Below are positions 23,328-36,315 of a stretch of DNA of 36,315 bases, piece after piece. The position numbers were made by a program, and so were the translations under genes. The notes under the pieces were generated by a model. That model saw only the letters and a program-made list of their open reading frames with translations, searched no databases and was not told the DNA's origin. The stretch comes from BD1-7 clade bacterium. GTDB lineage: Bacteria > Pseudomonadota > Gammaproteobacteria > Pseudomonadales > DT-91. The first letter of the stretch is position 1. Each line of letters opens with the position of its first letter. The stretch lies in NCBI GenBank assembly GCA_902705835.1, contig CACSIN010000006.1, positions 44,707 through 81,021 of the forward strand, written 5' to 3'.

Positions 23328-23657
23328 ATGTCCGGGCAAATCTTTAAGATCGTATTTCAAAATCAAGACCAGGTATTCGAGGTGTATGCTCGGCAGATTT
23401 TTCAAAGCGAACTCTATGGCTTTATTGAAGTAGAAGAGTTTGTCTTCGGTGAGAAGACGCAGGTGATTGTCGACCCGAGCGAAGAAAAATTGAAAAACGA
23501 GTTTGCGGGCGTGAAGCGCTCGTTTATTCCGATGCATTCGGTGATTCGTATCGACGAAGTCGATAGTCGCGGTACGGCGAAGATTACTGAAAACAACGGT
23601 TCGAATGTGACACGGTTTCCGACCAAACCTGATTTTGGCTCTAAGCCGCCGGTTTAA
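23328..23657 (+). CDS. DUF1820 family protein
   Basis: This small conserved proteobacterial protein has 109 residues and no established function. The start ATG at 23328 gives the family beginning (MSGQIFKIVFQNQDQVFEVY) and has AGG just upstream; an earlier ATG at 23265 would add 21 non-conserved residues. The core segments YGFIEVEEFVFGE and VDPSEEKLKNEF are recognisable. It is divergent from miaB, 214 bases away. Confidence 0.9.
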   Translation: MSGQIFKIVFQNQDQVFEVYARQIFQSELYGFIEVEEFVFGEKTQVIVDPSEEKLKNEFAGVKRSFIPMHSVIRIDEVDSRGTAKITENNGSNVTRFPTKPDFGSKPPV

Positions 23658-23669
23658 GCGGCTTTCTTC
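23643..23669 (+). terminator. Possible terminator overlapping the DUF1820 stop
   Basis: AAGCCGC (23643-23649) pairs with GCGGCTT (23658-23664) and TCTTC follows. The stop codon lies in the 8-base loop. The T-tract is weak, so this is tentative. Confidence 0.4.
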
Positions 23670-23810
23670 GCATTCCAGCTGAGCTTTTCTGCCGAGCTCT
23701 CCTACCGAGTTTTTCGGTCACACCCCTCTGCATCTGGTTTTAGCACTCACTTTGTAGTTGGTAAGAAACCAACCCCGTCGAGAAGATGCGGATGCACGAT
23801 TGTATCATCG

Positions 23811-26795
23811 TCATTCGTGTTGATACTTCATCAATTTCGTAAAATGGCCGTTTTGGCGTTTTAGGGCATCGTAACTGCCCTGTTCAACGATTTTTCCATC
23901 CTGCATAACCAATATACGATCCGCTTTGATGATAGTTGATAGCCGGTGTGCGATGACAATGCGTGTCGCCTGGAGTTGGTCAAGCGCCCGTGTAATGATC
24001 GCTTGGGTTTGGTTATCCAATGAGCTGGTAGCTTCGTCAAATAACAGTACTTTTGGGTTTTGCGCGAGTGCTCTAGCAATCATTAACCGTTGAACCTGAC
24101 CACCTGAAATCGCGGTGGAGTTGGCTGATACCCGAGTTTCGAGTTTCATTGGCATCGCATCGATTACCGGTTTAAGCCCGGCGTCATCGAGTGCCTGCCA
24201 CAGACGTTTGTCGTCGATATTGCGGCCGGCGCGCAAATTATCTCGAATGGAGCCGTCGATCAGCTGGCGGCTTTGCAAAACGACCCCTAATTGTCGTCGT
24301 AATGAAGGTTTGTTGAGTGCGGTAAGGTCCGTGCGATCGTATTGAATAGACCCCAGCAATGGCTTTTCAAACCCGAGCAGCAGGCGCATTAGAGTGGATT
24401 TTCCGGAGCCTGAGAAGCCGACGATGGCGACGTATTCGCCAGCGGTGATATCAATGCTGATATTTTGTACCGCCAATGGCAGGTCATCTTGGTAGCGGAA
24501 GCTGACATGGTTGATAGATATATTACCGGCGAGTGAAAAAACCGGTTCTGAGGCATTTTCAGATTCCGTGGGTTGATCCAGAATTGGCCGGATGCGTTCG
24601 TAGTCTGGCTTCAGGCTCATCAGATTGACGGCACTTTCTGACAAGGTAAACACCGCAGCCATAAACTGCCCAAGCGCAACATTGAATGCCATGAAGTCCG
24701 CGGTAGAAATAATCTGCGTGGTGTTTTGACTGTGCAGCTCGACCCAGCTGGTAGGGGTCTCAAAAAAAGCAAATAACACGTGGCCCTGGAACGACACAGT
24801 GGTAATGAGGCCGATAAATGCCAAGAAGTGAAATAAGGATTTAAACAATTTAAGCCGATTGCTGATCATTTGTGTGCGGTAAGACAGTGCAAGAATGTCA
24901 CTGTATTGGCGGTTCCAACGGGCGAAGGCTGTGACGACGGCGTTGCTGGTTTTGAGTTTGCTGATGGCGTTGAGTAGTTGGATTCCTAGCCCCTGCATAT
25001 GCCCCTGCCGTAGCATTAGATCGCGATGCATCTGGAGCATGCGTTTGCCAACAAAATAGATACATACGAGGTAAGTGAGAGCAATCAAACTGGCGATGCA
25101 GGCGATTTTCCATTGGTAGTAGAGCATCATCAGTAGTGAAAAAACTCCGGTTGCTCCCTGCAAAACACCTGAGATTGTTGTGGCGCCCAGCCTGCGCCGA
25201 ATTTGATTAATACCTGCGGCGCGATTAGCAAGATCGCCCGCTGTGTATTGTTGGAAAAAACTGCCCGGTAAGTGCAACAACCGATTCCAAACGGCGGTTT
25301 CCAATTTGAAGCTCATGGCACCTTCAGTGCGCAACAGGCTCATGTTCTGTATCAGTTGCAATAGTATGCCCGTGAGCCCAATGCCTGTTAGTGCGGTAAT
25401 GTAGATCACCAATTGTGATACTTCGGCGTTGGGAATGGCATAGCCGACAATGCGGCCGGTAATCAATGGCGGCAAAATTGATAGCAACCCGGCAAAGAAC
25501 GCGCAGGCGATTACTAATCGCGCCTCGGGCATTAAGCCTTTACCGGCATAACGCAGGATATTCCACGTTGACAGGTGAACGGGCAACTCCGGCACCACAA
25601 CGTAGGCGGTTGACCGCAGCTGGTGTGTGTTGGGTTGTGCATGGTGCGATCCAATGGCTTGGTAGTGATGGGTTTTATGGTGAACCAAGGTGACCGGATT
25701 GCCGTCTCTATCGAAAGCCAGAATAGCGGGGTAATTTTGCTGGAAGAGATCTGCTCTAACGTTGATGCGGCGTAGTTGAATACTGCTAACGATTGCTAGC
25801 GCGCCGAGAGGGTCGTCTTGGCGTAATGCGACAGAAATTTGCCGTTCTTCCAAATCGATATCGAGGCTGCTGGCTTTGGCTAGATGTAAAAATGCGGAGA
25901 CTAGTTCATTTTTGTGCAATGGCGCAGTTGTGTCTTTCCCTGTGAGGGTTTCAGGGAGTCTGCCGAGGCTATTTCGGTACTTTGCGCGAACGTTTTCGGC
26001 GCGGCGGAGATTGTTTTCTTCCAGGTTGGCGGCGCGTTCTTCGGCTGATTTTAAGTAGGCATCGAATATTATATGGTGAAGAGATTGCCAGTGATTCACC
26101 AACGCCGTTTGGCTAAGCCATTCTTTTGTGGATAACGGTGTTGTTGTTTCTTCGCTGGCAACTGCTGCCATGGTTAATGAAACTGGAACCAAGGTGGGTG
26201 CAACGCTTGTCGGTGCAAATGCAGGCAGGCCTTTAATCCAAGTGAAATCATTTGCTGTGACTCGCTGGCCTGCGTGAATCAGGGATTGCAGTGGAAGTGT
26301 AATGCGAGGCGCGTTGTATATCGTATTGTTTTCGTCGGCGTATTCGAGGTTGCTATACAGGTTTGTTAGCCAGACTTCGACGCAATCTGCAAATGCCTCT
26401 GTCGCCGTTAAATCCTCGATGCTATGCCAATCCAGTTTCAGGATTTGTGCATCCATTGACGGGCTTACCGCGAATTGCTCAACCGTTAAGTGGCTAGCTT
26501 GCGGGCAAAAAAGGATGCTTCCGGCTTCGAAGCGTCCTATAAAGCTGGGCACTTGTTGTGTGTTATCCGTTGGCGTTGGGTTAGCAAACAGGTCGACAAA
26601 GCCGCTCAATACCAAGACGAGTTCGGTGTCCGATGTGAACGAGAATCTGTCTCGTCGATTAACGGTCTGGACATCACCTTCCCAATGATTGCCACTGATC
26701 CAGCTGGCGAATGGCTCTGGCCACACTTTGCTGGCTAGTTGCTTGAGCGTGGTGCCGCCGAGCAGGAAGTCGAGTTTTCCGCCTTTTTCACTCAT
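23811..26795 (-). CDS. NHLM-type RiPP exporter, ABC permease/ATPase with long N-terminal region
   Basis: This 994-residue protein is the second ABC subunit of an NHLM bacteriocin-type export system. Residues 1-130 resemble a cyclic-nucleotide-binding-like fold (beta-rich, with RFEAGSILFCPQ). Residues 130-410 form a large soluble region without a catalytic motif I recognise, and no C39 Cys-His pair. About five or six membrane helices follow (425-720), then the nucleotide-binding domain with Walker A GFSGSGKST at 793-801, signature SGGQ near 897-900 and Walker B VLLFDEATSSLD. Its start overlaps the stop of the C39-ABC gene by four bases (ATGA). It likely works with that protein to move mature peptide into the periplasmic tunnel. 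Confidence 0.9.
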   Translation of the reverse strand: MSEKGGKLDFLLGGTTLKQLASKVWPEPFASWISGNHWEGDVQTVNRRDRFSFTSDTELVLVLSGFVDLFANPTPTDNTQQVPSFIGRFEAGSILFCPQASHLTVEQFAVSPSMDAQILKLDWHSIEDLTATEAFADCVEVWLTNLYSNLEYADENNTIYNAPRITLPLQSLIHAGQRVTANDFTWIKGLPAFAPTSVAPTLVPVSLTMAAVASEETTTPLSTKEWLSQTALVNHWQSLHHIIFDAYLKSAEERAANLEENNLRRAENVRAKYRNSLGRLPETLTGKDTTAPLHKNELVSAFLHLAKASSLDIDLEERQISVALRQDDPLGALAIVSSIQLRRINVRADLFQQNYPAILAFDRDGNPVTLVHHKTHHYQAIGSHHAQPNTHQLRSTAYVVVPELPVHLSTWNILRYAGKGLMPEARLVIACAFFAGLLSILPPLITGRIVGYAIPNAEVSQLVIYITALTGIGLTGILLQLIQNMSLLRTEGAMSFKLETAVWNRLLHLPGSFFQQYTAGDLANRAAGINQIRRRLGATTISGVLQGATGVFSLLMMLYYQWKIACIASLIALTYLVCIYFVGKRMLQMHRDLMLRQGHMQGLGIQLLNAISKLKTSNAVVTAFARWNRQYSDILALSYRTQMISNRLKLFKSLFHFLAFIGLITTVSFQGHVLFAFFETPTSWVELHSQNTTQIISTADFMAFNVALGQFMAAVFTLSESAVNLMSLKPDYERIRPILDQPTESENASEPVFSLAGNISINHVSFRYQDDLPLAVQNISIDITAGEYVAIVGFSGSGKSTLMRLLLGFEKPLLGSIQYDRTDLTALNKPSLRRQLGVVLQSRQLIDGSIRDNLRAGRNIDDKRLWQALDDAGLKPVIDAMPMKLETRVSANSTAISGGQVQRLMIARALAQNPKVLLFDEATSSLDNQTQAIITRALDQLQATRIVIAHRLSTIIKADRILVMQDGKIVEQGSYDALKRQNGHFTKLMKYQHE

Positions 26796-28951
26796 TGTGA
26801 TTTCACCAGCGCCGCATAGTGGCCATTCAACGCTATCAATTGATCGTGGCTGCCACGTTCAACCAGTGTGCCGTTGTCGAGCACGAGTATTTGATCGCAG
26901 TCTTTTATGGTGCTGAGTCGATGCGCAATGATTAAGCAGCTAATGGCACGTTTACGTAAGTTGTTATCGATGCGTCGTTCTGTTAGTGCATCCAGTGCTG
27001 CGGTGGCTTCGTCCAAAATCAATACCGACGGGGTGCGGGTCAGTGCCCTAGCGATTTCCAGGCGTTGGCACTGGCCACCACTGAAATTTGCGCCGCGTTC
27101 GGCAATGTGAGCTTGGTAGCCACCGGGCCTGCGAATAATATCGTCATGAATACACGCATCCTTGGCAGCCTGTATTACTGTCTGCATCGGTAAGCTCGAA
27201 TCCCACAGGGTCAGGTTGTTTGATATGGATCCCTCAAACAGGAAAATATCTTGATCGACACTGGCGATGGATGCCGATAGTGTTGCATTGTCGATATCTG
27301 CAAGGTTGCGATCGCCAATGGTTATGCATCCGTGATCGGGTTGTTCCAATCCTAATAGAATTCTTGCCAGTGTCGATTTGCCGGATCCTGAACCACCCAC
27401 GAGTGCGACTCTTTCGCCGGGTGCCACTGAAAAGTGAATGTTTTGCAGCACCCATGGGCTGTTTTCGGTATAGCGGAAGGCCAGTTGATCGACGTTCAGC
27501 GTGCCGCTGAGTCGATCGGGTGCCGTCGGTTCGGGAATATGATTGCGTGTGTCGATGTCGACTTCGGTGACATCGTTAAAACGCTGTAGATCAGCCGTTG
27601 ATTGTTGGATGCCTGCAGCGAGGCTGATTACCGACTGAATCGAGTTGGCGAATTGTCCCATTAGTGTTTGGAAACCTAGCAGTATGCCAATGCTGAGGTT
27701 GCTGCCGATGATTAAGGCAGAGCCAAAACCCAAGATACAGGCAATGCTGATGGTGTGGGCAAGCCCAGGGGCAGTGTTCAAGTATTGTGATGTGCGGCCC
27801 ATGATTTGGCTGGCATTGATGGCTTGAATTTCTTCTCTCATCCATTGATGGGTAATGAAGTCAGATTCTGATCCGGTTGCTTTCAGTGTTTCTGCGGCAT
27901 GCAATGCCGATACTGAAACACCCGCGAGGGTGGCTTGATGGCTTAACATAGCCGCGCTTTTCTCACTGCGAAGGTTCTGTGTACTCCAAACCAGGGCAAT
28001 GTTCAAAAAGGTGATGGCTAAGGCAGCGAGAGCAAGTTTGACATCCATAGAAAACATCACTGCGGCGTAAACCGCAGCGGATATCATGTGCGCAAAGGCA
28101 AGAGAAAACGGCCCTGCCAACAATGCTGATATATTGTGGCAAGAAGCCAGCCGTGACATCAGATCGCCAGCTGAACGTTGATTGAAATACTGCATGGGCA
28201 GTTTCATCAAGTGCATGAAAAAATTACCCGAGATACGGGCTGTGAGTTTGGTCTCGAGTTTCAGTAGATAACGGTTTTGTTGATAGATAAAGATCGCATT
28301 CAAAACTGCTGCGAGCACCAATAATAGAATCAGCGGCAATATCCAGGTGTTGGTTTGCTGTATCAGAATGTCATCAACAAAGGATTTAAGTGCTGCGGCT
28401 AGGGTTAGCCCGGGTATGGTCATTAACAGAGCGTAACCGGCAATGATCAGTGCGGTTTGCTGATTGCCTTGAAAGAGGGCCAGTAATTGGCGCGTAGACG
28501 AGGGTCTTTTACCGTGTGGTTCAAAATCCGTATCCGGTTCGAGCATCAAGCAGATGCCTGAATAATGGCGATCCAGTTCGTCTGTGGAGATAACCTGACG
28601 TCCAACTGCCGGGTTATTAATGTGAATCTTACCGCGGTGGAACCCTTCAACGACGACAAAATGGTTTTTGTCCCAGTGTGCAATAAAAGGCGGTTTGAGT
28701 TTTCGCAGTTGGCGTTTAGTCGCCATTTTCCCTTGCGCTTTTAAGTTGAATGTCACGGCCGTGGATTTTATTTGAAGTAGGTTGGCACCATCTCGATTGA
28801 TGGCCATTTTTTGGCTCAGCTCTCGTAGTTCAATCCAGTAGCCGAAGTGGGCAAGGATACTCGTTAAGCATGCTGCGCCGCATTCAGTGGCTTGCATCTG
28901 CATAACAACGGGGGTTCTTACGATGCCGTTTTTCAGCAGCGGTATATTCAT
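26792..28951 (-). CDS. NHLM-type RiPP exporter, C39 peptidase / ABC permease / ATPase
   Basis: This 719-residue peptidase-containing ABC transporter should cut Gly-Gly leaders and export the core. The C39 domain (about 1-140) shows Gln18, catalytic Cys24 (ATECGAACL) and His97 (DKNHFVVVEG). The residue expected to be the catalytic Asp is Asn113 (HINNPAVG); H-to-N spacing of 16 equals H96-D112 of ComA. The membrane domain follows (about 165-450). The nucleotide-binding domain has Walker A GGSGSGKST at 519-527, signature FSGGQ at 623-627 and Walker B VLILDEATAALD. Its ATG directly follows the adaptor gene's TAA. Confidence 0.93.
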   Translation of the reverse strand: MNIPLLKNGIVRTPVVMQMQATECGAACLTSILAHFGYWIELRELSQKMAINRDGANLLQIKSTAVTFNLKAQGKMATKRQLRKLKPPFIAHWDKNHFVVVEGFHRGKIHINNPAVGRQVISTDELDRHYSGICLMLEPDTDFEPHGKRPSSTRQLLALFQGNQQTALIIAGYALLMTIPGLTLAAALKSFVDDILIQQTNTWILPLILLLVLAAVLNAIFIYQQNRYLLKLETKLTARISGNFFMHLMKLPMQYFNQRSAGDLMSRLASCHNISALLAGPFSLAFAHMISAAVYAAVMFSMDVKLALAALAITFLNIALVWSTQNLRSEKSAAMLSHQATLAGVSVSALHAAETLKATGSESDFITHQWMREEIQAINASQIMGRTSQYLNTAPGLAHTISIACILGFGSALIIGSNLSIGILLGFQTLMGQFANSIQSVISLAAGIQQSTADLQRFNDVTEVDIDTRNHIPEPTAPDRLSGTLNVDQLAFRYTENSPWVLQNIHFSVAPGERVALVGGSGSGKSTLARILLGLEQPDHGCITIGDRNLADIDNATLSASIASVDQDIFLFEGSISNNLTLWDSSLPMQTVIQAAKDACIHDDIIRRPGGYQAHIAERGANFSGGQCQRLEIARALTRTPSVLILDEATAALDALTERRIDNNLRKRAISCLIIAHRLSTIKDCDQILVLDNGTLVERGSHDQLIALNGHYAALVKSQ

Positions 28952-30238
28952 TTAGTTACGTCCCGTAGTATCAGGCTGCCTAGGCGCTGATGTATCCGGC
29001 GCAATCCATTCGTGAAATACGGGAATCAGAAGATTAATAGGATGGATTTTATCAAGCTCAACGGAGACATACGCAAATTCTCCGGGGCTGATCTTCTGTC
29101 GAGGTCCATTGGAGGATGTCCATGCCAAGCCGCTGTATGTGTTCGGGTCAGTTGTTAACACTAATTTGACCTGAATCGGGGCAGAATCAGCGGTCAGACT
29201 TTGGGCGAGATCGTTTTCACCGACGACGGCCAAGACTTCCTTACGCGATACGGGTAAGCGGCTAACGTCGTCGACCCGCGCAATAATAGAGCCGTAGATA
29301 TCGCGCTTTACGGTTGTCGGGGTAACCAGTGCCCGCATACCGGGTCTGACGCGTTTGCCTTTGTCAGGTGGCAGATAGGCAAATACTTCGAGACCTTTAC
29401 CCTGCGCTTCAATGGTCACGAGCTTGGCTCCGGCATCTACAAATTCGCCGAGATCTGAATTTACCGATGTCACTATGCCGTCTACCGGAGCGCGAACGCG
29501 GGTTGCGATATTGACTTGCGTGGTGAGTTCGCTGAGTTTTTCTTGTGCCTCGGTAATGCTATTTAGTAGTTGTTGGGCTTTCAGGGCGTTTTGGTTTAAG
29601 TAGGCAAGCTGCTTTTCATCCAGAGATACGAGAGTGTTTGAATTACCGGCAATCGTTTGCTGGACAGTATCAATATCAGCGCGTGTTGAATGTAACATCT
29701 GTGCTGTGGCGTACCCGGCTTTGACTTCTTTCTCAAGATTGCGCTCGAGGTTTTTGAGATAGGCAAGCTGTGTCTTGAGTTCGGTATTATTGGATTCCAG
29801 CGTTTTGATTCGCCGTGCCAAAAGTGTTTCGCGTTTTGCGGATTCTTCCGTGGTCAGTGACTTCCATGTGGTGTATTCCTGCTTGGCGAAATCACGCTGT
29901 TTTTCAGCGATTTTAATTTTTTGATGATCCACCAAGTGGCGCAACGTAATAATGTCTTCGCCCTGCATCACTGTGCTGCCGGGTTTGGTTTGGATGTTGG
30001 CAACCGTGCCGGCACTGGAGGCGGAAGCTTGATAAATGCGGCTGTTCTTCCACAGTACGATACCCATGCCATCACCGCGATGGGAGAGAGTGCCGAAGAC
30101 GGCCCAAATAACGATAACCAGGCAAACGACGGCAAATGCGCCCCAGAATAGCCAGCCTGAATAGGGCACTAGTTGCAGGCTGGCATACATTTGGTCGGTC
30201 GATTCAGCCTTGTTGGGTTGGGTGTTTTTTTCGTCCAT
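28952..30238 (-). CDS. HlyD-family periplasmic adaptor of the NHLM export system
   Basis: This membrane-fusion protein should link the ABC proteins to the TolC-like channel. I chose ATG at 30238 (428 residues): AGGGG lies upstream and the start follows the TolC-like stop by 13 bases. An upstream ATG would extend into the previous gene. A transmembrane helix spans about 28-50. It is followed by a lipoyl half-motif (AGTVANIQTKPGSTVMQGE), a long alpha-helical hairpin, the second lipoyl half (RVRAPVDGIVTSVNSDLGE) and beta-barrel regions. Confidence 0.92.
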   Translation of the reverse strand: MDEKNTQPNKAESTDQMYASLQLVPYSGWLFWGAFAVVCLVIVIWAVFGTLSHRGDGMGIVLWKNSRIYQASASSAGTVANIQTKPGSTVMQGEDIITLRHLVDHQKIKIAEKQRDFAKQEYTTWKSLTTEESAKRETLLARRIKTLESNNTELKTQLAYLKNLERNLEKEVKAGYATAQMLHSTRADIDTVQQTIAGNSNTLVSLDEKQLAYLNQNALKAQQLLNSITEAQEKLSELTTQVNIATRVRAPVDGIVTSVNSDLGEFVDAGAKLVTIEAQGKGLEVFAYLPPDKGKRVRPGMRALVTPTTVKRDIYGSIIARVDDVSRLPVSRKEVLAVVGENDLAQSLTADSAPIQVKLVLTTDPNTYSGLAWTSSNGPRQKISPGEFAYVSVELDKIHPINLLIPVFHEWIAPDTSAPRQPDTTGRN

Positions 30239-30251
30239 GAGTTGATAACCC

Positions 30252-31646
30252 CTATTGTGGCGGATATTGAGACGGGGATTTGCGGTCGATAGCTTGCTGC
30301 TTGTGATCGTCGCCAGTATCAAGATAACTCAATGTAAGGATGCCCATGGTCGACAAAAGTTTTGCTTCGCTTAACAGTAAGCGGCGAAAGGCTTGTTGGT
30401 GTTGTATGCGGGCTTCAAGATAGGTATTTCGGGCTTCAATCACGTCTTTTACGGTGACCTGTCGGTTGCGGTATTGCACTTGCAGGCCTTCAATTATTGC
30501 CTGTGCATAGCTGACATCTTGAGCGGTCTGTTGGATGTTTTTCTGGCTGGTGCTCAATTGCGTGTGTGCGGTGTAGGCACCGGAGACGATCGTGTTCTGC
30601 AAGTCGAGCATTTGATAGTAAGCTTCTACGGCTTTTTTCTTTGCTTGCCGCACTAGTGAATATGTATTGCCACCCAGGTACAGGGGCACGCTCACTGACA
30701 GCGTCACAACTTGGGTTGTTTCGTAGCCGAGCTCATCGAAGGATCCGCTTGATGCATAGCGCGCAGCGTCTTTGACGTAGGTTGCCTGATACGACAGACC
30801 CAATTGCGGTAGCAGGGCGCCTTCGTTTTGTTTCACAAAATATTTACTGGCTTCAACACTGGCCTTTTGTGCCTGTAGCTGAGGGTTGTTGTTGAGGCTA
30901 CGTTCCACAGCGTCTGTTTCTGAAAACCGGTTCTCTGTCAGTGTTGGCCATTGATCAACTGGCTGTTGGCGAGTACCTGTAATGATGGCAAAACGGTGGT
31001 TAGCGGCACGCAACAAGCCGAGTTGCTGATCAATCTGCACGCTGATGGCACTGAGTTGTTGTTGTGCTCGTGCAACATCAACGCGCGTGGCCAGTTTGCG
31101 TGCCAGCTTATTCCGGTTGTCGCGGATCAGGTTCTCGGCAGCTTTTGCTTCTTCCTGAAGAAATCTGAGAGTTTTACGGGTAAGTTGTATGGCTGCAAAG
31201 GTATGTGTCACGTTGAGAAACAGTGTCTGTTGTGTCTGGTCTACACTAAATTCGGCAGCATTGATGGTGTAGTCAGCGACTTTTCCGGCGGCTTGATTTT
31301 GGCCGCCGGAAAACAATGGATAATCGATATTGAGGCCGACTGTTTTTTCGTCAGTGTGGGTGATGGTATCGAGATCGGCGTTAACTTTTTGGTCAATGCG
31401 CTCAAGTGCTACGTCGCCTGAAACTGAAATTTGCGGTTGCCAGAACGTCGACAACGCTTGTGATTTTATTTCTGTGGTTGCTTCATAGCCGGCTTCGGCA
31501 GCACGCATTGCAGGGTTACTTTTGTATGCGAGCGCGAATGCTTCTCTTAATGTGATACCCGAGTTTGCCCGGCTCTGCATACTCGCTATGAGCAACATAC
31601 CGGCGACGATCATCGTCCAGATAACAGTATGTGTCTGTCTTTTCAT
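30252..31646 (-). CDS. TolC-family outer membrane efflux protein
   Basis: This is the predicted outer membrane channel of the RiPP exporter. ATG at 31646 (464 residues) starts a clear signal peptide (MKRQTHTVIW, cleavage near SRANS). A longer ORF start at 31733 would overlap the divergent GNAT-like gene. Two OEP repeats are visible: the first begins ITLREAFALAYKSNPAM, the second near RSLNNNPQLQAQKASVEA. It heads the operon tolC-like, hlyD-like, C39-ABC, ABC. Having its own TolC paralogue suggests a dedicated tripartite export line. Confidence 0.92.
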   Translation of the reverse strand: MKRQTHTVIWTMIVAGMLLIASMQSRANSGITLREAFALAYKSNPAMRAAEAGYEATTEIKSQALSTFWQPQISVSGDVALERIDQKVNADLDTITHTDEKTVGLNIDYPLFSGGQNQAAGKVADYTINAAEFSVDQTQQTLFLNVTHTFAAIQLTRKTLRFLQEEAKAAENLIRDNRNKLARKLATRVDVARAQQQLSAISVQIDQQLGLLRAANHRFAIITGTRQQPVDQWPTLTENRFSETDAVERSLNNNPQLQAQKASVEASKYFVKQNEGALLPQLGLSYQATYVKDAARYASSGSFDELGYETTQVVTLSVSVPLYLGGNTYSLVRQAKKKAVEAYYQMLDLQNTIVSGAYTAHTQLSTSQKNIQQTAQDVSYAQAIIEGLQVQYRNRQVTVKDVIEARNTYLEARIQHQQAFRRLLLSEAKLLSTMGILTLSYLDTGDDHKQQAIDRKSPSQYPPQ

Positions 31647-31707
31647 GATCACGAGTTTGCTTTCATCCTTGTTAGTGAAAGCGTAGCTCAAAACAACGGG
31701 ATAGCCG

Positions 31708-32598
31708 ATGGCATTCAATGATGTTGAGCTCAAGGTGCTGGATTGCCGCAGTGCCGCGCAGACTGCCCCATTTCGTTCGCTAACCTATGCCGCGATGCAG
31801 CATCTTTTTGACCCCATGATTGCTGATCAGGTCTGCGCTGTAGGGCTGTCGGTAGGCGATGCGCCCGTCGGTCTTGCTTTGGCGCGCCGCAATGGTGATG
31901 TGGAGTGGGAGATGGCCTCGTTCTTTATTCAGGGTTTTTGGAATACTGAGGAGCAACGACAGCGATTATTTGGGTGTTTGGTTAACGCCGTTAACTTGCC
32001 GAGTGGGAAGGGCTATTACCTATTCACATTGAGTGAGGCTGATGGAGATCGGGATTGGCAACAGTTGAAAAAACTGGGTTGGCATACTCCAGTCTACCGT
32101 GGTGTCAGTTGTGAAGTAGGGATGGATGACGCCGTCATTTGCCCGTGGATTGTATCTGCAACGTTACCCGAAGCTTATCGAATCGTTGAATGGGGTGATC
32201 TTGATGTTAATGCGTTATCAACTCTGAAACAGAACCTGCCGACGCTACTCGATCAATACCACCCTACCATTGACCCGTTTCATCACTTAGACGGTGCGGA
32301 TACTGCGCTGAGCCTGGCACTGGTGAAAAATAACACGATTGTTGGCTGGCACGTTGTTCATCGATTAGATGACGCGGTTGTACGTTGGTCGTGCAGCTGC
32401 ATTCTTGATCGAAGCCGCCACCGGACGTGGATATTTTCACTATGGAAGGAGGCGATTTTTCGTCAGCAGGCAATGGGCGTCGAGCGGTTTATTTTTGTTG
32501 TACAAAGCCGCCAGCCGACGATGGCGGAGTTTGCCGTGCGGCGATTGAAACCGGCTGGTACGCGCATTAGTGGGCTCTATCACGCGACGTATGGGTAA
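31708..32598 (+). CDS. GNAT-superfamily-like protein in the RiPP locus, function uncertain
   Basis: The 296-residue protein is divergent from the tolC-like gene (61 bases between the starts) and convergent with precursor A. The first half contains APVGLALARRNGDVEW followed by a helix and YYLFTLSEADGDRDWQQLKK, then LGWHTPVYRG. That layout resembles an acetyltransferase fold. A second half repeats a similar pattern (IVGWHVVHRLDDAVVRW), suggesting two tandem GNAT-like domains. The acetyl-CoA P-loop (Q/RxxGxG/A) is not clear in either half, so activity is doubtful. It could modify, bind or protect against the peptide, or be unrelated. Confidence 0.75.
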   Translation: MAFNDVELKVLDCRSAAQTAPFRSLTYAAMQHLFDPMIADQVCAVGLSVGDAPVGLALARRNGDVEWEMASFFIQGFWNTEEQRQRLFGCLVNAVNLPSGKGYYLFTLSEADGDRDWQQLKKLGWHTPVYRGVSCEVGMDDAVICPWIVSATLPEAYRIVEWGDLDVNALSTLKQNLPTLLDQYHPTIDPFHHLDGADTALSLALVKNNTIVGWHVVHRLDDAVVRWSCSCILDRSRHRTWIFSLWKEAIFRQQAMGVERFIFVVQSRQPTMAEFAVRRLKPAGTRISGLYHATYG

Positions 32599-32634
32599 CT
32601 TGCTCATCGGCGCGGTATGTAGGGCGTTATCCTA

Positions 32635-32952
32635 CTAAGTGTAAACGGCTGTGGGGCTTGTTCCGTCAGATGAAATACCCGTGGCAACAACGCTTTGGGT
32701 TATTTCTGCGTTTACTTGTGAGGTGTTGGTACTTTTACCACCAGCAACTGCTTCAAGCTGTGCATCACTGAGTTCAAGGCCTGATTGGTTCTCGATAAAC
32801 TCTTCAGCATCCTCCAGGGTAAACACAAACCCGTGCGCGTTAGCAAACTCGACGATCGACGCGAGACCGCTGGCAGACGCCTGAAACTGTGTCGACAGCT
32901 CGGCATCATTCTCAATAGCAGCAAGAAACTTTGCGATGTGGGCGTTGGCCAT
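32635..32952 (-). CDS. Nif11-type RiPP precursor peptide A
   Basis: The 105-residue peptide has a Nif11-like leader (1-72) with the helical landmarks HIAKFL, FANAHGF and LEDAEEF, ending LSDAQLEAVAGG. Gly71-Gly72 is the expected C39 cleavage site. The 33-residue core (73-105) is rich in Ser, Thr, Val and Ala, has no Cys, and ends SPTAVYT. Without Cys, lanthionines and sactionine links are excluded. GAGGA lies close upstream of the ATG. The gene follows the B12-type radical SAM gene by 20 bases on the same strand, so that enzyme is its likely maturase. The leader matches precursor B at 35 of 72 positions without gaps (hand count). Confidence 0.92.
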   Translation of the reverse strand: MANAHIAKFLAAIENDAELSTQFQASASGLASIVEFANAHGFVFTLEDAEEFIENQSGLELSDAQLEAVAGGKSTNTSQVNAEITQSVVATGISSDGTSPTAVYT

Positions 32953-32972
32953 ACTATTTCCTCATAGGTCCG

Positions 32973-34901
32973 TTAGCCGTTCAGGCTGTTTAGTGTTTCT
33001 GCCGTTTTGATATAACCGCCAGGAAAATTCTCCAGCTTGGGCAACTCTGCCGCTTTGCCATTCAATGCTAACGCCAGATAACGTTGGTTGTTTTTCAGCA
33101 GTAGTTTGTTGTTTTGCAGTGTTTGTAATGCGGTCTCAAAATTATTGTTCATATTGGCGTTATCGGCGAATTTTCGCATCAATGCGTCATGGTGGATTGG
33201 CGTATGGCATGCGAGGTAAATTTCTGCGTCGATACCTCGAAGACAATGTTGCGGCTGTGTTGCGATTTCGCGGGTATCTTCGATGAGGATGTCATTGTCG
33301 ACGAATGTCATTGTTAATTGTGGGGTTTCTTGTTTTCCCCAATACTGCTGAATCCAGAGTTTAAGCGCTTTTTCCAGCTTGGTATGGCCAGGCTGACTGA
33401 ATTCATAAGACGTCTCGAGTTTGTAATTTGCTTGTGGTTCTTCGCTGGTGCTTTCGAAAAAGTACGCGATGTTGGTCAGTTGTTCATCATCAAGTGGGTA
33501 GATATGGCGGTAGCTGGCTAAGGGTTTGATGGAAATCCCCCAGCGTTCAGGTGCATCAAAGTAGGGGCTAAACCTTGGGTAACGCACTTTGATTAGGTTC
33601 TGCCGGGGCGCTTGCAGATGTGCAATCATCGGCAGCCAATCTGCCATGTCGCTGTACCAACTGTCTTTTTCACCGGGAATATTCGATAGCAGATTCCAGA
33701 ACAAGCGCACGCCAAACTGTGTGCACCACTTAAGAGTGGCAACGTTTTGAATGGCTGTCGTGCCTTTGCGCACTAATTTTAAAAAATCATCATTGAGGCT
33801 TTCAAGACCCGGTTGAATCCATCGAATACCTGCATCTGCCATTGCTTTGACTTGGTGTTCTTTTAGGTTGGCTTTGGTTTCATAAAATATTTCATAGTGT
33901 CTTTCGTCGCCGCTCAGGTGTGGCGTTAATGTTTTAATGTACTCTGCCGCCATAATATTATCGACGACTTCAAAGCGGTTGATCTTATGCCGAAAAAAAA
34001 GGGTATCCATTTCATCTAGTACGGTATTGGCGGGTTTCGCCCGGTAGTCCATTCCCATGCCATTGAGGCCACAAAAGGTACAGTGCGCTTTGGCACCCCA
34101 CCAGCAACCGCGGGATGTTTCCAGAACTAGCCCCGGGTTGATTTCATCGCTGAGTGCGAGCTGTTCGAGTGTTGCAAAGTAGTCATCATAGTTGGGCATA
34201 CCGACATGACTCATATCCTCGACGGCCGCACGAGTGATAGCTGTATCAGAGGCGATGGTTTGAGTTTGTCGGGTCAGCAGCCCTTCAAATTGGCTCTCTA
34301 TTGGTGTTTCGTTAGTCAGCAACGTTTGTATCAGTGGCACAATGGTTTCATCGCATTCACCCGAGAAAACAAAGTCCAACCAATCGAAGGCGTTAATCAG
34401 GGTTTGGCCCATAATGCCTTCACAATTAGCACCGCCCATCATGGTGATGATGTCTGGGCGTTTTTGTTTGATCTCCCTGAGGAGCGCAAGAGACGCGCAG
34501 TTTTGCTGAAACGTCGATGTACAGCCGACTATTTTTGGATTCGTGGCAATAACATCATCTGCAAGTTCGCGAATAAATCGGGGGGTATAGGCGCGATGTT
34601 GTTGGAGTAAGGTTTTTAGGTTTTTGTGGATGTTGGGAAAGAGCTCAAAATAGGCGGGGTCTTTTCCCTGCATTTCAGGGAAGGCTGCCGGAGCAAAGGT
34701 CCATTCGCCGGCCATGTGCTCATGATTGATGGCTTCAACCAGGTAGGTGTATTTGACGCCGGCTTTTTTTGCGTAGAGCAGATTGGCGTCGATGACCTGA
34801 CAGGCTAATCCTGCTTTTGATAAGTAAGTTTTGATCAGGCCAAGTGCGATAGAAGGTCTCGCCATCGACGCATAGGGCATATTGACGAGGCACACTGACA
34901 T
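32973..34901 (-). CDS. B12-binding-type radical SAM RiPP maturase (rSAM_ocin_1-like)
   Basis: The 642-residue enzyme likely modifies a Nif11-type core. Residues 1-200 form a Rossmann-like cobalamin-binding-type domain (RPSIALGLIKTYLSKAG, then TMMGGANCEG, then FSGECDETI), though no DxHxxG motif is seen. The radical SAM domain has SRGCWWGAKAHCTFCGLNG, with cysteines 266, 274 and 277 spaced CX7CX2C instead of CX3CX2C. This matches, as far as I recall, the family named RiPP maturation radical SAM protein 1. The last 90 residues look like a winged-helix leader-recognition domain (RGIDAEIYLACHTP, then NNQRYLALAL). A good Shine-Dalgarno (AGGAG) precedes the ATG. The exact reaction is unknown. Confidence 0.88.
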   Translation of the reverse strand: MSVCLVNMPYASMARPSIALGLIKTYLSKAGLACQVIDANLLYAKKAGVKYTYLVEAINHEHMAGEWTFAPAAFPEMQGKDPAYFELFPNIHKNLKTLLQQHRAYTPRFIRELADDVIATNPKIVGCTSTFQQNCASLALLREIKQKRPDIITMMGGANCEGIMGQTLINAFDWLDFVFSGECDETIVPLIQTLLTNETPIESQFEGLLTRQTQTIASDTAITRAAVEDMSHVGMPNYDDYFATLEQLALSDEINPGLVLETSRGCWWGAKAHCTFCGLNGMGMDYRAKPANTVLDEMDTLFFRHKINRFEVVDNIMAAEYIKTLTPHLSGDERHYEIFYETKANLKEHQVKAMADAGIRWIQPGLESLNDDFLKLVRKGTTAIQNVATLKWCTQFGVRLFWNLLSNIPGEKDSWYSDMADWLPMIAHLQAPRQNLIKVRYPRFSPYFDAPERWGISIKPLASYRHIYPLDDEQLTNIAYFFESTSEEPQANYKLETSYEFSQPGHTKLEKALKLWIQQYWGKQETPQLTMTFVDNDILIEDTREIATQPQHCLRGIDAEIYLACHTPIHHDALMRKFADNANMNNNFETALQTLQNNKLLLKNNQRYLALALNGKAAELPKLENFPGGYIKTAETLNSLNG

Positions 34902-35153
34902 GAAAATCTCCTGATTTAACCGCTATCGCGCGTGGTAACAGACTTAGCCTTGAATGGCTGGTAGCAAGATGTCGCGGCCGCAATTCCTTTGTATTCCTTG
35001 TATGGACTCCGATAGCGTGACGATTACTGCATCACAGACCGTATTGTGAGTTTAACCCGCAGGAAACGAACCCGACTACACCTTGTCGAAGTTTCCAAAG
35101 ACCTATCAGAGCGACTAGAGTCTAGTAGGTTATTCATCAGTGAGGATGGGCTT
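34902..35153. other. Divergent intergenic region between the two RiPP units
   Basis: This 252-base gap lies between the start of the radical SAM gene (minus) and precursor B (plus). It should contain both promoters, but I found no confident -35/-10 pair. An in-frame ATG-like extension of precursor B into this region (from 35046) is unlikely to be translated, since the Nif11 leader and a good Shine-Dalgarno start at 35154. Confidence 0.45.
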
Positions 35154-35567
35154 ATGTCGTTAGAGCATATCGAAAACTTTCTCGAAGCATTAAAAACGGA
35201 CACCACGATGCTTGAGGAATTTCAGGACACGATTGGAGGTTTGCAGTCCGTTGTTGATTTTGCGGCGTCCAAGGGCTTTTCGATCTCGCTTGAAGACGCA
35301 AGAGAGTTTCTTCGCACTCAGGCTGACATTGAGCTCAGTGATGAGCAACTTGAAGCCATTGCTGGGGGTAAGGGGCATTCTTCGTCTTCCAGTGTTGCAG
35401 TCGCAACTCAGGCGGCAGCGGTGCAGACCGTTGCAGCGGCGACAACCGAAGCCGCTGTATCGGAAACCACCGAAGCGGTCATCGCTGAAACGACTGAAGC
35501 TGCTGCGGTAGAGACGTCGCTGGTAGCGGCAGTTGAGGCGGTTGTTGTGCCGGTATTGGTTAGCTGA
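35154..35567 (+). CDS. Nif11-type RiPP precursor peptide B with repetitive core
   Basis: The ATG at 35154 has GAGGA seven bases upstream and starts a 72-residue Nif11-like leader (HIENFLEAL, FAASKGFSISLEDAREFL, LSDEQLEAIAGG) of exactly the same length as in precursor A. The 65-residue core (73-137) is dominated by Ala, Val, Thr, Glu and Ser, has no Cys, and carries four tandem 8-residue units at 97-128 before a hydrophobic tail (AVVVPVLVS). Such a core fits a substrate for epimerisation or methylation, as in proteusins, rather than thioether crosslinking. The PoyD-like gene starts 48 bases downstream. Confidence 0.92.
   Translation: MSLEHIENFLEALKTDTTMLEEFQDTIGGLQSVVDFAASKGFSISLEDAREFLRTQADIELSDEQLEAIAGGKGHSSSSSVAVATQAAAVQTVAAATTEAAVSETTEAVIAETTEAAAVETSLVAAVEAVVVPVLVS
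35442..35537 (+). repeat. Four tandem 24-bp / 8-residue repeats in precursor B core
   Basis: Residues 97-128 read as TTEAAVSE, TTEAVIAE, TTEAAAVE and TSLVAAVE. The first three share TTEA in the first four positions; all four end in Glu with small aliphatic residues before it. The codons differ between units (ACA/ACC, ACC/ACC, ACG/ACT), so the protein repeat is conserved better than the DNA. Confidence 0.85.
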
Positions 35568-35615
35568 ACATCTTTTTCTCCTACCGTAACTCTCCCATCT
35601 AACAACGGAGGCTAC

Positions 35616-36315
35616 ATGGAATCTGCCGCCAACGCGCCCCATGTGCAACAGTATCAAGCATTATTTAGTTCGCTCAATGACGAACAGTGCCATGACTTGG
35701 CTCATATCAAACGGTTTTTGGAACGTATCGTCGGTGATAATACGTTTCGTGATGCTTTTGCTGAATGCGAGGATGCTGACGCCATATTGGCACTAGCACG
35801 TTCGATTGGTTGTGATATTGATCCGCTGGATATTCTGCCGTTGTTCCATGCGAATTTTCTGGAACAAAAAGGTTTACCTGAAGCGATAGAGCGCTGGCCT
35901 AAACATCATTTGTGGACAGAGTATATTCGCCAGTTGCGCGCACATCTCACTACCGTAAAGGAAATGGGCGGCCCGAAAGAAGCCAGTCCAAAATTACACC
36001 GCTGGCGTTTGCGTCAAATTATTCGTACTAACAATCAGCTAGGTTATCATCTTGGGCACCACATTGTTCATCCGTTAATTACTTTCGAACTTTCTGACGG
36101 GTGTTCTGTGGGTTGCTGGTTTTGCGGTATTTCAGCCGAAAAATTTAATGGCTACTGGCCCTATAGCGAAGAGAATGCTGCACTTTGGCAAGCTATCCAT
36201 CAGCAATGTCAAACATTGATGGGGACGGCTATGCAAACAGGGTTTTGCTACTGGGCTACCGACCCTATGGATAATCCCGACTACGATAAGTTTCTGATGG
36301 ATTACTACCGTGCCC
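35616..36315 (+). CDS. PoyD-like radical SAM RiPP epimerase (5' part; 3' end outside window)
   Basis: An ATG with a strong GGAGG upstream opens 233 codons to the window edge. The radical SAM motif CSVGCWFC has cysteines 163, 167 and 170 (CX3CX2C), in the context FELSDGCSVGCWFCGISAEK, which resembles the PoyD-type amino acid epimerases that turn L- into D-residues in RiPP cores. Residues 29-77 resemble the Nif11 leader itself (HIKRFLERIVGDNTF, then ILALARSIG), suggesting a fused leader-like domain. The family's H-donor Cys and the auxiliary region lie outside the window. It is co-directional with precursor B, its likely substrate. Confidence 0.85.
   Translation, partial: MESAANAPHVQQYQALFSSLNDEQCHDLAHIKRFLERIVGDNTFRDAFAECEDADAILALARSIGCDIDPLDILPLFHANFLEQKGLPEAIERWPKHHLWTEYIRQLRAHLTTVKEMGGPKEASPKLHRWRLRQIIRTNNQLGYHLGHHIVHPLITFELSDGCSVGCWFCGISAEKFNGYWPYSEENAALWQAIHQQCQTLMGTAMQTGFCYWATDPMDNPDYDKFLMDYYRA

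What the first reader, a model, noticed from the sequence alone, without database searches (positions are those of the whole stretch)
23811..36315. Two-precursor, two-radical-SAM Nif11 RiPP locus with complete NHLM-TolC export set
The window shows two Nif11-type Gly-Gly precursors, a B12-binding-type radical SAM enzyme, a PoyD-like epimerase, a GNAT-like protein, C39-ABC and partner ABC proteins, an HlyD adaptor and a TolC-like channel. The cores lack Cys, so lanthipeptide or sactipeptide chemistry is excluded. D-amino-acid formation plus a B12-dependent modification is the plausible output. The combination of Nif11 leaders, instead of nitrile-hydratase-like proteusin leaders, with a PoyD-like enzyme and a CX7CX2C B12 enzyme in a free-living gammaproteobacterium may be undescribed. 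Pairing of each enzyme with one precursor is inferred from adjacency.
Basis: partly seen in the sequence, partly recalled or inferred. Interest (0 to 1): 0.88.

Follow-up and report, generated by a model that had tools for sequence, protein, structure and literature searches.

The report
Island making a D-amino-acid, lipidated peptide
A bacterium of the BD1-7 clade carries a compact, inserted set of nine genes predicted to make and export one or two small peptides whose building blocks are flipped to mirror-image forms, methylated and perhaps given a fatty tail; similar gene sets recur in other bacteria, so it is a real but not unique natural-product pathway.

Summary
Window 23811 to 893 bases past the window end is a nine-gene RiPP cluster of a BD1-7-clade gammaproteobacterium: two Nif11-leader precursors, a PoyD-family epimerase (449.5 bits), a CX7CX2C B12 radical-SAM C-methyltransferase (681 bits), a tandem-GNAT protein, ABC/ABC/HlyD and TolC. 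It is a clean insertion: a genome of a sister genus has the flanking genes side by side without it. dN/dS is 0.015-0.18 for the nine genes. The novelty claim weakens: a review already mentions Nif11-type leaders beside the PoyD homologue PlpD; 54 of 77 PoyD-type loci here hold Nif11 precursors; and a Mesorhizobium has precursor, both enzymes, GNAT and exporter in a row with one precursor, so pairing by adjacency is not supported. New here, as far as I could see: precursor B's core resembles cores behind another leader class (NHLP) in other phyla; the GNAT is related to GNATs in lanthipeptide clusters of the selidamide sort and goes with Lys at core position 1, predicting a lipidated D-peptide; PoyD-family enzymes carry an N-terminal domain of the leader clan. 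All chemistry is inferred. New variant of a known kind.

The parts
23811..26795 (-). ABC2: NHLM-type partner ABC permease/ATPase, 994 aa
   Evidence: TIGR03797 663.6 bits (cut-off 709.4), best family
26792..28951 (-). ABC1: C39 peptidase + permease + ATPase, 719 aa
   Evidence: TIGR03796 776.4 bits (cut-off 853.3); PF03412 Peptidase_C39 E 1.4e-33
28952..30322 (-). HlyD periplasmic adaptor (NHLM type), 456 aa from the first TTG
   Evidence: TIGR03794 231.8 bits over cut-off 156.2
30252..31733 (-). TolC-like outer-membrane channel; true start probably downstream of the first TTG
   Evidence: PF02321 OEP E 1.2e-50; TIGR01844 158.7 bits below cut-off 225.15
31708..32598 (+). Tandem-GNAT protein, predicted acyltransferase on the core peptide
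   Evidence: 10 of 13 family members hit Acetyltransf_1; AlphaFold2 pLDDT 78.9; best PDB matches tandem GNATs 7q3a, 2wpw, VipF, TM about 0.5-0.6
32635..32952 (-). Precursor A: 72-aa Nif11 leader ending AGG, core of 33 aa
   Evidence: TIGR03798 44.9 bits over cut-off 32.3
32973..34901 (-). B12-type radical-SAM C-methyltransferase, CX7CX2C, 642 aa
   Evidence: TIGR03975 681.4 bits (cut-off 281.85); PF02310 B12-binding 24.1 bits below cut-off 32.1; motif read
35154..35567 (+). Precursor B: 72-aa Nif11 leader ending AGG, core of 65 aa with an eight-residue repeat and a Val-rich end
   Evidence: TIGR03798 42.8 bits; core comparison; repeat test
35616..36315 (+). PoyD-type radical-SAM epimerase (first part; continues to window-equivalent 37208), CX3CX2C, with an N-terminal leader-clan domain
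   Evidence: TIGR04517 449.5 bits (cut-off 325); Nif11 domain PF07862 25.8 bits over cut-off 23.8 at residues 30-65
23658..36315 (.). Part in the window of the inserted island; right edge lies outside, before window-equivalent 37330
   Evidence: Empty site in genome G005

Best explanation
A self-contained RiPP cluster, probably acquired as a unit. Two precursors with Nif11 leaders (A, 33-aa core; B, 65-aa core) are made; a PoyD-type radical-SAM enzyme turns selected L residues of the cores (most likely Val/Ala of precursor B) into D residues; a PoyC-like B12 radical-SAM enzyme methylates unactivated carbons, most likely Val side chains; a tandem GNAT probably acylates the Lys that follows the Gly-Gly site; the C39 domain cuts after Gly-Gly and the ABC/HlyD/TolC system exports the product. 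Shown by sequence: gene identities, cluster limits, selection, recurrence, resemblance of cores. Inferred: each chemical step, its sites, which enzyme acts on which precursor, and the biological role (probably an exported antagonist or signal).
For: Families; 39 of 39 aligned epimerases, the sister strain's among them, match TIGR04517. Limits: in G005 the flanking genes are 535 bp apart, with one small stretch homologous to window 23409-23563 and no match to the nine cluster proteins at E 1e-3. Selection: dN/dS between G000 and G003 is 0.015 to 0.180 for the nine genes; precursor B 19 synonymous to 1 replacement change. Precursor B and epimerase: in most Nif11 loci listed the precursor lies next to the epimerase and many cores end Val-rich. 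B12 step: CX7CX2C is described for PoyC, which C-methylates Val and Ile (passages of PMC11285071); the host genome has four cobalamin riboswitches over the cut-off. GNAT: its family model finds cyanobacterial GNATs in loci with LanM and Nif11 precursors, one with a core much like the published NpuA, whose GNAT acylates Lys1. In loci with a GNAT 19 of 20 GG-site precursors have Lys at +1, against 12 of 22 without (p 0.004 per precursor; per locus 11 of 11 against 9 of 19, p 0.004).
Against: No product, mass or enzyme assay. The GNAT's acyl-CoA loop is degenerate in both halves of the window copy (read), so it may be inactive or bind differently. The Lys1 link is not corrected for kinship; 8 of the 20 precursors are from one locus; one GNAT call (L021) is a 67.6-bit partial match and without it p is 0.005-0.011; several cyanobacterial GNAT loci have precursors without Lys1. 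Precursor A's core has no clear relative (best z 4.2), and its core changes (1 synonymous, 2 replacement) tell nothing about selection. The C39 domain has Asn where 11 of 13 aligned have Asp.
Confidence: 0.8

Rival explanations
1. Two separate products: the B12 enzyme serves precursor A only and the epimerase serves precursor B only, sharing the exporter.
For: Gene order: B12 enzyme and precursor A are 20 bp apart on the minus strand, precursor B and epimerase 48 bp apart on the plus strand. The two cores are unlike in make-up.
Against: Both enzymes occur with a single detected precursor in L017, L018, L022 and L026. The two leaders are identical at 35 of 72 positions. Val, the likely C-methylation site, is more frequent in core B (14 of 65) than in core A (4 of 33).
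Confidence: 0.25
2. The GNAT is a self-protection or other enzyme and not a maturase of the peptides.
For: Divergent acyl-CoA loops; the structural matches have many different roles.
Against: It lies inside the insertion, is conserved (ratio 0.18), co-occurs with PoyD-type enzymes in 12 of 77 loci, and its family includes GNATs in loci with LanM.
Confidence: 0.3
3. A decayed or silent cluster in which the pathway no longer works.
For: Degenerate GNAT loops, Asp-to-Asn in the C39 motif, one undetermined base in the epimerase.
Against: All nine reading frames are open; low dN/dS since the split from G003, lowest in precursor B; the undetermined base is resolved in G003.
Confidence: 0.07

Closest known systems
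Polytheonamide-type proteusin pathway (poy)
   Same: PoyD-family epimerase and a CX7CX2C B12 C-methyltransferase as described for PoyC (passages of PMC9505594 and PMC11285071); Val/Ala-rich core without Cys.
   Different: Nif11 leaders in place of the nitrile-hydratase-like leader; no gene assigned to N-methylation or hydroxylation among the nine; a GNAT instead; core with Glu-containing repeats and one Pro. The poy sequences were not held, so there was no direct comparison.
Spliceotide cluster plp of Pleurocapsa (PlpD epimerase)
   Same: PoyD homologue with precursors whose leaders resemble nitrile hydratase or Nif11 proteins (passage of PMC11002830).
   Different: Its second radical-SAM enzyme PlpX excises tyramine with an RRE protein; here the second enzyme is TIGR03975, and there is a GNAT. 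Not compared by sequence.
Selidamide pathways (kamptornamide, phaeornamide, nostolysamide)
   Same: GNAT of a related family beside Nif11 or NHLP precursors; Lys directly after the cleavage site as in NpuA.
   Different: No lanthionine synthetase, no arginase, no Cys here. NpuN itself was not compared.
Nif11 + PoyD-type loci of rhizobia, Microvirga, Roseibium, Rhodospirillaceae, Spiribacter
   Same: Precursor and epimerase, often B12 enzyme, GNAT or exporter; same side of the epimerase tree.
   Different: 21 rhizobial precursors lack the GG site, and 23 of 31 rhizobial ones have a sigma-54 promoter.
NHLP precursors next to PoyD-type enzymes (Thermoanaerobaculia L084, cyanobacterium L079)
   Same: Similar core: 24 of 42 positions identical without gaps to L084's C-terminal part.
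   Different: NHLP leader instead of Nif11.

Membership tests
PoyD-type RiPP epimerase (TIGR04517) | Full-length match over the curated cut-off | tested here: met
   449.5 bits, cut-off 325, profile 1-441 of 446
PoyD-type RiPP epimerase (TIGR04517) | CX3CX2C cluster motif and a conserved later Cys (its role as H donor is recalled, from no call) | tested here: met
   C163, C167, C170 and C335 invariant in 39 rows, L016 numbering
PoyD-type RiPP epimerase (TIGR04517) | L-to-D conversion of core residues | not testable with these tools
   needs D2O labelling or Marfey analysis
RiPP B12 radical-SAM C-methyltransferase (TIGR03975) | Full-length match over cut-off and CX7CX2C | tested here: met
   681.4 bits, cut-off 281.85; motif read; CX7CX2C named for PoyC in PMC11285071
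RiPP B12 radical-SAM C-methyltransferase (TIGR03975) | B12-binding domain by its own model | tested here: inconclusive
   PF02310 24.1 bits, below cut-off 32.1
Nif11-leader RiPP precursors (TIGR03798) | Leader match over cut-off, Gly-Gly site | tested here: met
   42.8 and 44.9 bits, cut-off 32.3; AGG in both
Proteusins | Nitrile-hydratase-like leader (TIGR03793) | tested here: not met
   Neither precursor hits TIGR03793 at E 0.01; no TIGR03793 match in the sister genome behind L016 (G396)
Selidamides | GNAT related to the RiPP acyltransferases | tested here: inconclusive
   Family model finds GNATs in loci with LanM and Nif11 precursors, one with an NpuA-like core; NpuN itself not held
Selidamides | Fatty acyl on an Orn or Lys side chain | not testable with these tools
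   only the Lys after GG was seen
NHLM exporter (TIGR03794/03796/03797) | All three proteins over their cut-offs | tested here: not met
   HlyD over; ABC1 and ABC2 have these models as best family but stay below cut-off
Lanthipeptides / sactipeptides | Cys in the core and, for lanthipeptides, a lanthionine synthetase | tested here: not met
   no Cys in either core; no lanthionine synthetase in the tables

The most novel reading that the evidence does not exclude
PoyD-type epimerases carry at their N terminus a domain of the same clan as their substrates' leaders (Nif11 or NHLP), a relic of a precursor-enzyme fusion that now helps to hold the leader; and the substrate core is an older, separately inherited unit that has been carried by both leader classes. 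The window's product would then be a lipidated, C-methylated D-amino-acid peptide, a cross of the polytheonamide and selidamide kinds.
Probability: 0.25. Interest if true: 0.75.

Novelty: new variant of a known kind. Interest (0 to 1): 0.5.

Why it matters
If the predictions hold, one compact cluster makes a peptide that combines epimerisation, C-methylation of unactivated carbons and lipidation, changes that bear on membrane activity and stability. The survey shows that epimerases with Nif11-leader substrates are a large group in sequenced genomes, and the likeness of cores behind two leader classes gives a direct way to ask what is recognised in a RiPP precursor: leader, enzyme domain or core.

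Tried and rejected
Considered and rejected: (a) a unique combination: rejected. (b) independent swaps of leader class and enzyme N-terminal domain: rows with Nif11 and with NHLP leaders are separated by one change on the epimerase tree, so the match of domain type to leader type is a single phylogenetic contrast. (c) foreign base composition: none, G+C is 0.47-0.51 in the cluster part and 0.46-0.52 in the window; the insertion rests on the empty site. (d) Rfam: no match in the window at gathering scores. (e) PDB by sequence: nothing useful for the GNAT (best E 0.1) or the epimerase (no hit). (f) papers naming rSAM_ocin_1: none. (g) a paper on the BD1-7 strain: the 12 rows shown (of 1,238) have no occurrence of 'BD1-7 clade'. 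(h) an epimerase gene in G001, G002 or G005: none; in G001 the aminotransferase gene lies 207 bases from its contig end, so no empty site can be read there. Rows dropped: the tree left out L004, L010, L061 and L063; one search kept 89 of 90 epimerases; one search took GNAT matches from 30 bits (this adds L021) and includes L014 and L015, one search took 200 bits and only L016-L092; one search found 171 relatives but returned the best 80 (77 loci). Mended on checking: my first per-locus test had 9 non-Lys loci where one search shows 10; one search has the right counts. The probability of the novel case went from 0.3 to 0.25 because a paper speaks of an RRE domain embedded in the PoyD relative OspD and of leader-independent turnover; the interest went from 0.55 to 0.5 because.
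Full report
WHAT IS THERE. The window lies at G000:C6:44707-81021. ORF listing and family scans give nine genes in a row: ABC2 (23811-26795, minus), C39-ABC1 (26792-28951, minus), HlyD (28952-30322, minus), TolC-like (30252-31733, minus), GNAT-like (31708-32598, plus), precursor A (32635-32952, minus), B12 radical-SAM enzyme (32973-34901, minus), precursor B (35154-35567, plus; the frame opens at a GTG at 35046) and a PoyD-type radical-SAM enzyme (35616 to window-equivalent 37208, plus). The last gene is cut by the window end; its full frame was taken from the same contig (L004:8323-9915) and holds one undetermined base. Genome G003 has a near-identical cluster (96-99% protein identity) without that gap; its contig has the number and length of the record of BD1-7 clade bacterium SB11_3 (285,493 bases, L016). 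The BD1-7 clade is placed in Spongiibacteraceae, Gammaproteobacteria. Lifestyle was not tested.

FAMILIES. Epimerase: TIGR04517 449.5 bits against a cut-off of 325. B12 enzyme: TIGR03975 681.4 against 281.85, with C-X7-C-X2-C; the Pfam B12-binding model is hit below cut-off. Precursors: TIGR03798 44.9 (A) and 42.8 (B) against 32.3; both also hit the CTB bacteriocin model below cut-off. HlyD is over its NHLM cut-off; ABC1 and ABC2 have the NHLM models as best family but stay below the cut-offs (all). The GNAT-like protein alone hits nothing in Pfam or NCBIfam. With 12 relatives (alignment A2), 10 of 13 members hit Acetyltransf_1; the predicted structure (pLDDT 78.9) finds tandem GNATs best in the PDB (7q3a, 2wpw, VipF; TM-scores about 0.5-0.6). 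In the window copy the glycines of the acyl-CoA loop seen in most relatives are missing in both halves (read).

THE CLUSTER IS ONE INSERTED UNIT. In G005, a genome of another genus of the same family, the homologues of the MiaB-like gene (C53:18906-20249) and of the aminotransferase-like gene (C53:20785-22074) are 535 bp apart (both gene names are my reading). Between them lies a stretch that aligns with window 23409-23563 at 75%; none of the nine cluster proteins matches there at E 1e-3. In G000 the same two genes enclose the nine genes. So the insertion runs from about 23658 to before window-equivalent 37330. Base composition does not set it apart. Of six genomes of the family, G000, G003 and G004 have a TIGR04517 gene, and G004's cluster is a different one. 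Of 369 genomes drawn from the class, 3 have one, the own genome included.

IT IS KEPT. Between G000 and G003 dN/dS is 0.140 (ABC2), 0.045 (ABC1), 0.119 (HlyD), 0.107 (TolC), 0.180 (GNAT), 0.143 (precursor A), 0.072 (B12 enzyme), 0.015 (precursor B), 0.048 (epimerase). Precursor B's core alone has 13 synonymous and 1 replacement change; precursor A's core has 1 and 2, too few to tell.

HOW COMMON THE COMBINATION IS. A profile of four epimerases of the genus found 171 relatives in GTDB genomes; the best 80 gave 77 loci. A Nif11 model built from the two window leaders finds Nif11 precursors in 54 of 77 loci, a home-made NHLP model in 14, one locus having both and 10 neither. Of the 54, 22 have an enzyme like the window's B12 enzyme (phmmer 300 bits or more), 10 the GNAT, 7 both, 15 a C39-type ABC; both enzymes, GNAT, ABC1 and HlyD together are in L016 and L022 (flanks are 10 kb at most and many contigs are short, so these are lower bounds). 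L022, Mesorhizobium helmanticense, has precursor, epimerase, GNAT, B12 enzyme, HlyD, ABC1, ABC2 in a row on one strand with one precursor; the five of these that I scanned pass their NCBIfam cut-offs. On a quick tree of the epimerase without its N-terminal part, rows with Nif11 and rows with NHLP leaders are separated by one change; the NHLP side has SH-aLRT 99, and L016, which stands for the window's enzyme and is a long branch, falls with the Nif11 rows (branch support 91).

IN PRINT. A review states that the plp cluster with the PoyD homologue PlpD encodes precursors with leaders like nitrile hydratase or Nif11 proteins (passage of PMC11002830). A survey of marine Synechococcus mentions a Nif11 cluster with a putative epimerase of unstated kind (passage of PMC10783134). 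Nostatin A combines a PoyD-like epimerase with a second radical-SAM enzyme in a proteusin (passages of PMC11583998). So the pairing of Nif11-type leaders with a PoyD relative has precedent. I did not see the set with TIGR03975 enzyme and GNAT described (searches; passages read of PMC2887384, PMC9505594, PMC10676384, PMC10783134, PMC10858898, PMC11002830, PMC11583998, PMC12703449, PMC13060382). Subscription papers are not held.

PAIRING. Because single-precursor loci carry both enzymes (L017, L018, L022, L026), adjacency in the window does not show that each enzyme has its own precursor. The two leaders share 35 of 72 residues. Precursor B is the likely epimerase substrate because many Nif11 precursors next to these epimerases have the same kind of core, ending Val-rich. 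Its core has an eight-residue repeat (18 of 57 identities at lag 8; 0.0012 of shuffles at that lag, 0.017 over all lags 2-16). Precursor A's core has no clear relative.

SIMILAR CORE, OTHER LEADER. I compared the precursor B core of L016 (one residue different from the window's) with 86 cores of the epimerase loci. The best match is the NHLP-leader precursor of a Thermoanaerobaculia genome, L084 (its last 45 residues, since no GG site was found): 24 of 42 identical without gaps, z 7.6, 0 of 200 shuffles as high. Next are Nif11 precursors of other gammaproteobacteria (G004/L068 and L074, z 5.9-7.0); a cyanobacterial NHLP core (L079) has z 4.4. Such letters are of low complexity, so shuffles of the same letters were the control; convergence is not excluded. 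The reading I prefer is that the core type is older than the split of leader classes, or was moved between leaders.

B12 STEP. A review states that PoyC has CX7CX2C, performs C-beta methylation and methylates Ile3 and three Val (passages of PMC11285071). The host genome has four cobalamin riboswitches over the cut-off.

GNAT STEP. The A2 model, run over 195 genomes of a cyanobacterial order, matched in 57 at E 0.001 or better, many weakly. Of 20 regions fetched around strong matches, 6 show a Nif11 precursor; of ten proteins scanned from these regions, four, in four regions, are LanM-like. L123 has a LanM, the GNAT and a Nif11 precursor whose core, cut after VAGA, has 25 residues with Lys at 1, 3 and 24, two Thr, four Cys and four Ser; the published NpuA core has 25 residues, Lys1, Lys3 and Lys24, two Thr, four Cys and three Ser, and NpuN acylates Lys1 (passages of PMC13060382). 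In the epimerase loci, 19 of 20 GG-site precursors with a GNAT in the locus have Lys at +1, against 12 of 22 without (p 0.004; per locus 11 of 11 against 9 of 19, p 0.004; without the partial match L021 p 0.005-0.011; kinship not corrected). A further 28 precursors had no GG site by my pattern. Both window precursors have Lys. Against this: the degenerate loops, and cyanobacterial precursors without Lys1.

A LEADER-CLAN DOMAIN ON THE ENZYME. Residues 30-73 of the window's epimerase match the Nif11 domain (PF07862 25.8 bits over cut-off 23.8; TIGR03798 26.5 bits below cut-off). Of 39 aligned epimerases 3 hit PF07862 and 2 PF14407; 10 hit NF038399 'NHLP clan protein' (best E 3.4e-11), 5 TIGR04509 'NHLP-related RiPP peptide', 1 TIGR03798. 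Profile comparison: Nif11 leaders against this domain E 2.2e-6, 6.7e-6 for the enzymes of Nif11 loci alone; NHLP leaders against the enzymes of NHLP loci E 1.6e-7; crosswise 7e-4 and 1.3e-4; column shuffles never exceeded a score of 16.7 against 33 and 41; the two leader families do not find each other. One by one the signals are weak: with a margin of 2 bits and E under 0.05, 8 of 60 enzymes of Nif11 loci and 12 of 16 of NHLP loci are assigned, each to its own class. By sign of the score difference it is 52 of 58 and 16 of 16, but this is one phylogenetic contrast. The model of the enzyme has helices 22-40, 42-50 and 54-62 there at high confidence; the NHLP leader has a three-helix bundle (passages of PMC12455567). 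Against a recognition role: a paper says that the PoyD relative OspD has an embedded RRE domain and was shown to work leader-independently, though leader helices 1 and 2 had mattered in another study (passage of PMC10858898).

VERDICT. A real, complete and conserved RiPP island, a new variant of a known kind: PoyD- and PoyC-type enzymes on Nif11 leaders with a GNAT.

Noticed in passing
rhizobial loci among L021-L070; example L043:9407: Of Nif11 precursor genes in Mesorhizobium, Bradyrhizobium and Sinorhizobium/Ensifer loci 23 of 31 have a sigma-54 promoter (TGG[CT]A[CT]N5TTGC) within 200 bases upstream, 21 of them at -82 to -98, against 0 of 37 other precursors and 0.06 expected from shuffles; some have a TGT-N10-ACA element further up. 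L043's site is letter for letter the site printed for a Nif11-domain gene of Bradyrhizobium DOA9 lowered in rpoN mutants (passages of PMC13207237).
   Followed up: partly
L023-L025, L028, L032-L034, L037, L039-L041, L043, L044, L046, L048, L051, L052, L056, L060, L061, L069: Twenty-one rhizobial precursors next to the epimerase have no [AVST]GG site, and 19 of these 21 loci show no ABC or HlyD protein in the stretch held: a reduced form that may act inside the cell or be cut otherwise.
   Followed up: partly
window 26792-28951 (minus): In the C39 domain the DP motif reads NP; 11 of 13 aligned C39 domains have Asp there, the window's kind and L080 have Asn.
   Followed up: no
L012:7619-19873 and L013:36-389 (genome G004): A relative in the same genus has another cluster with two PoyD-type enzymes, a Nif11 precursor with a TTEA-type core, two ABC proteins, an HlyD and, by eye only, a methyltransferase and a condensation/thioesterase-like protein.
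   Followed up: partly
L020:5148-13392: A Rhodospirillaceae genome has nine Nif11 matches around one epimerase, with very different cores.
   Followed up: no
L004:9023: One undetermined base in the epimerase gene of the assembly, resolved in G003.
   Followed up: yes
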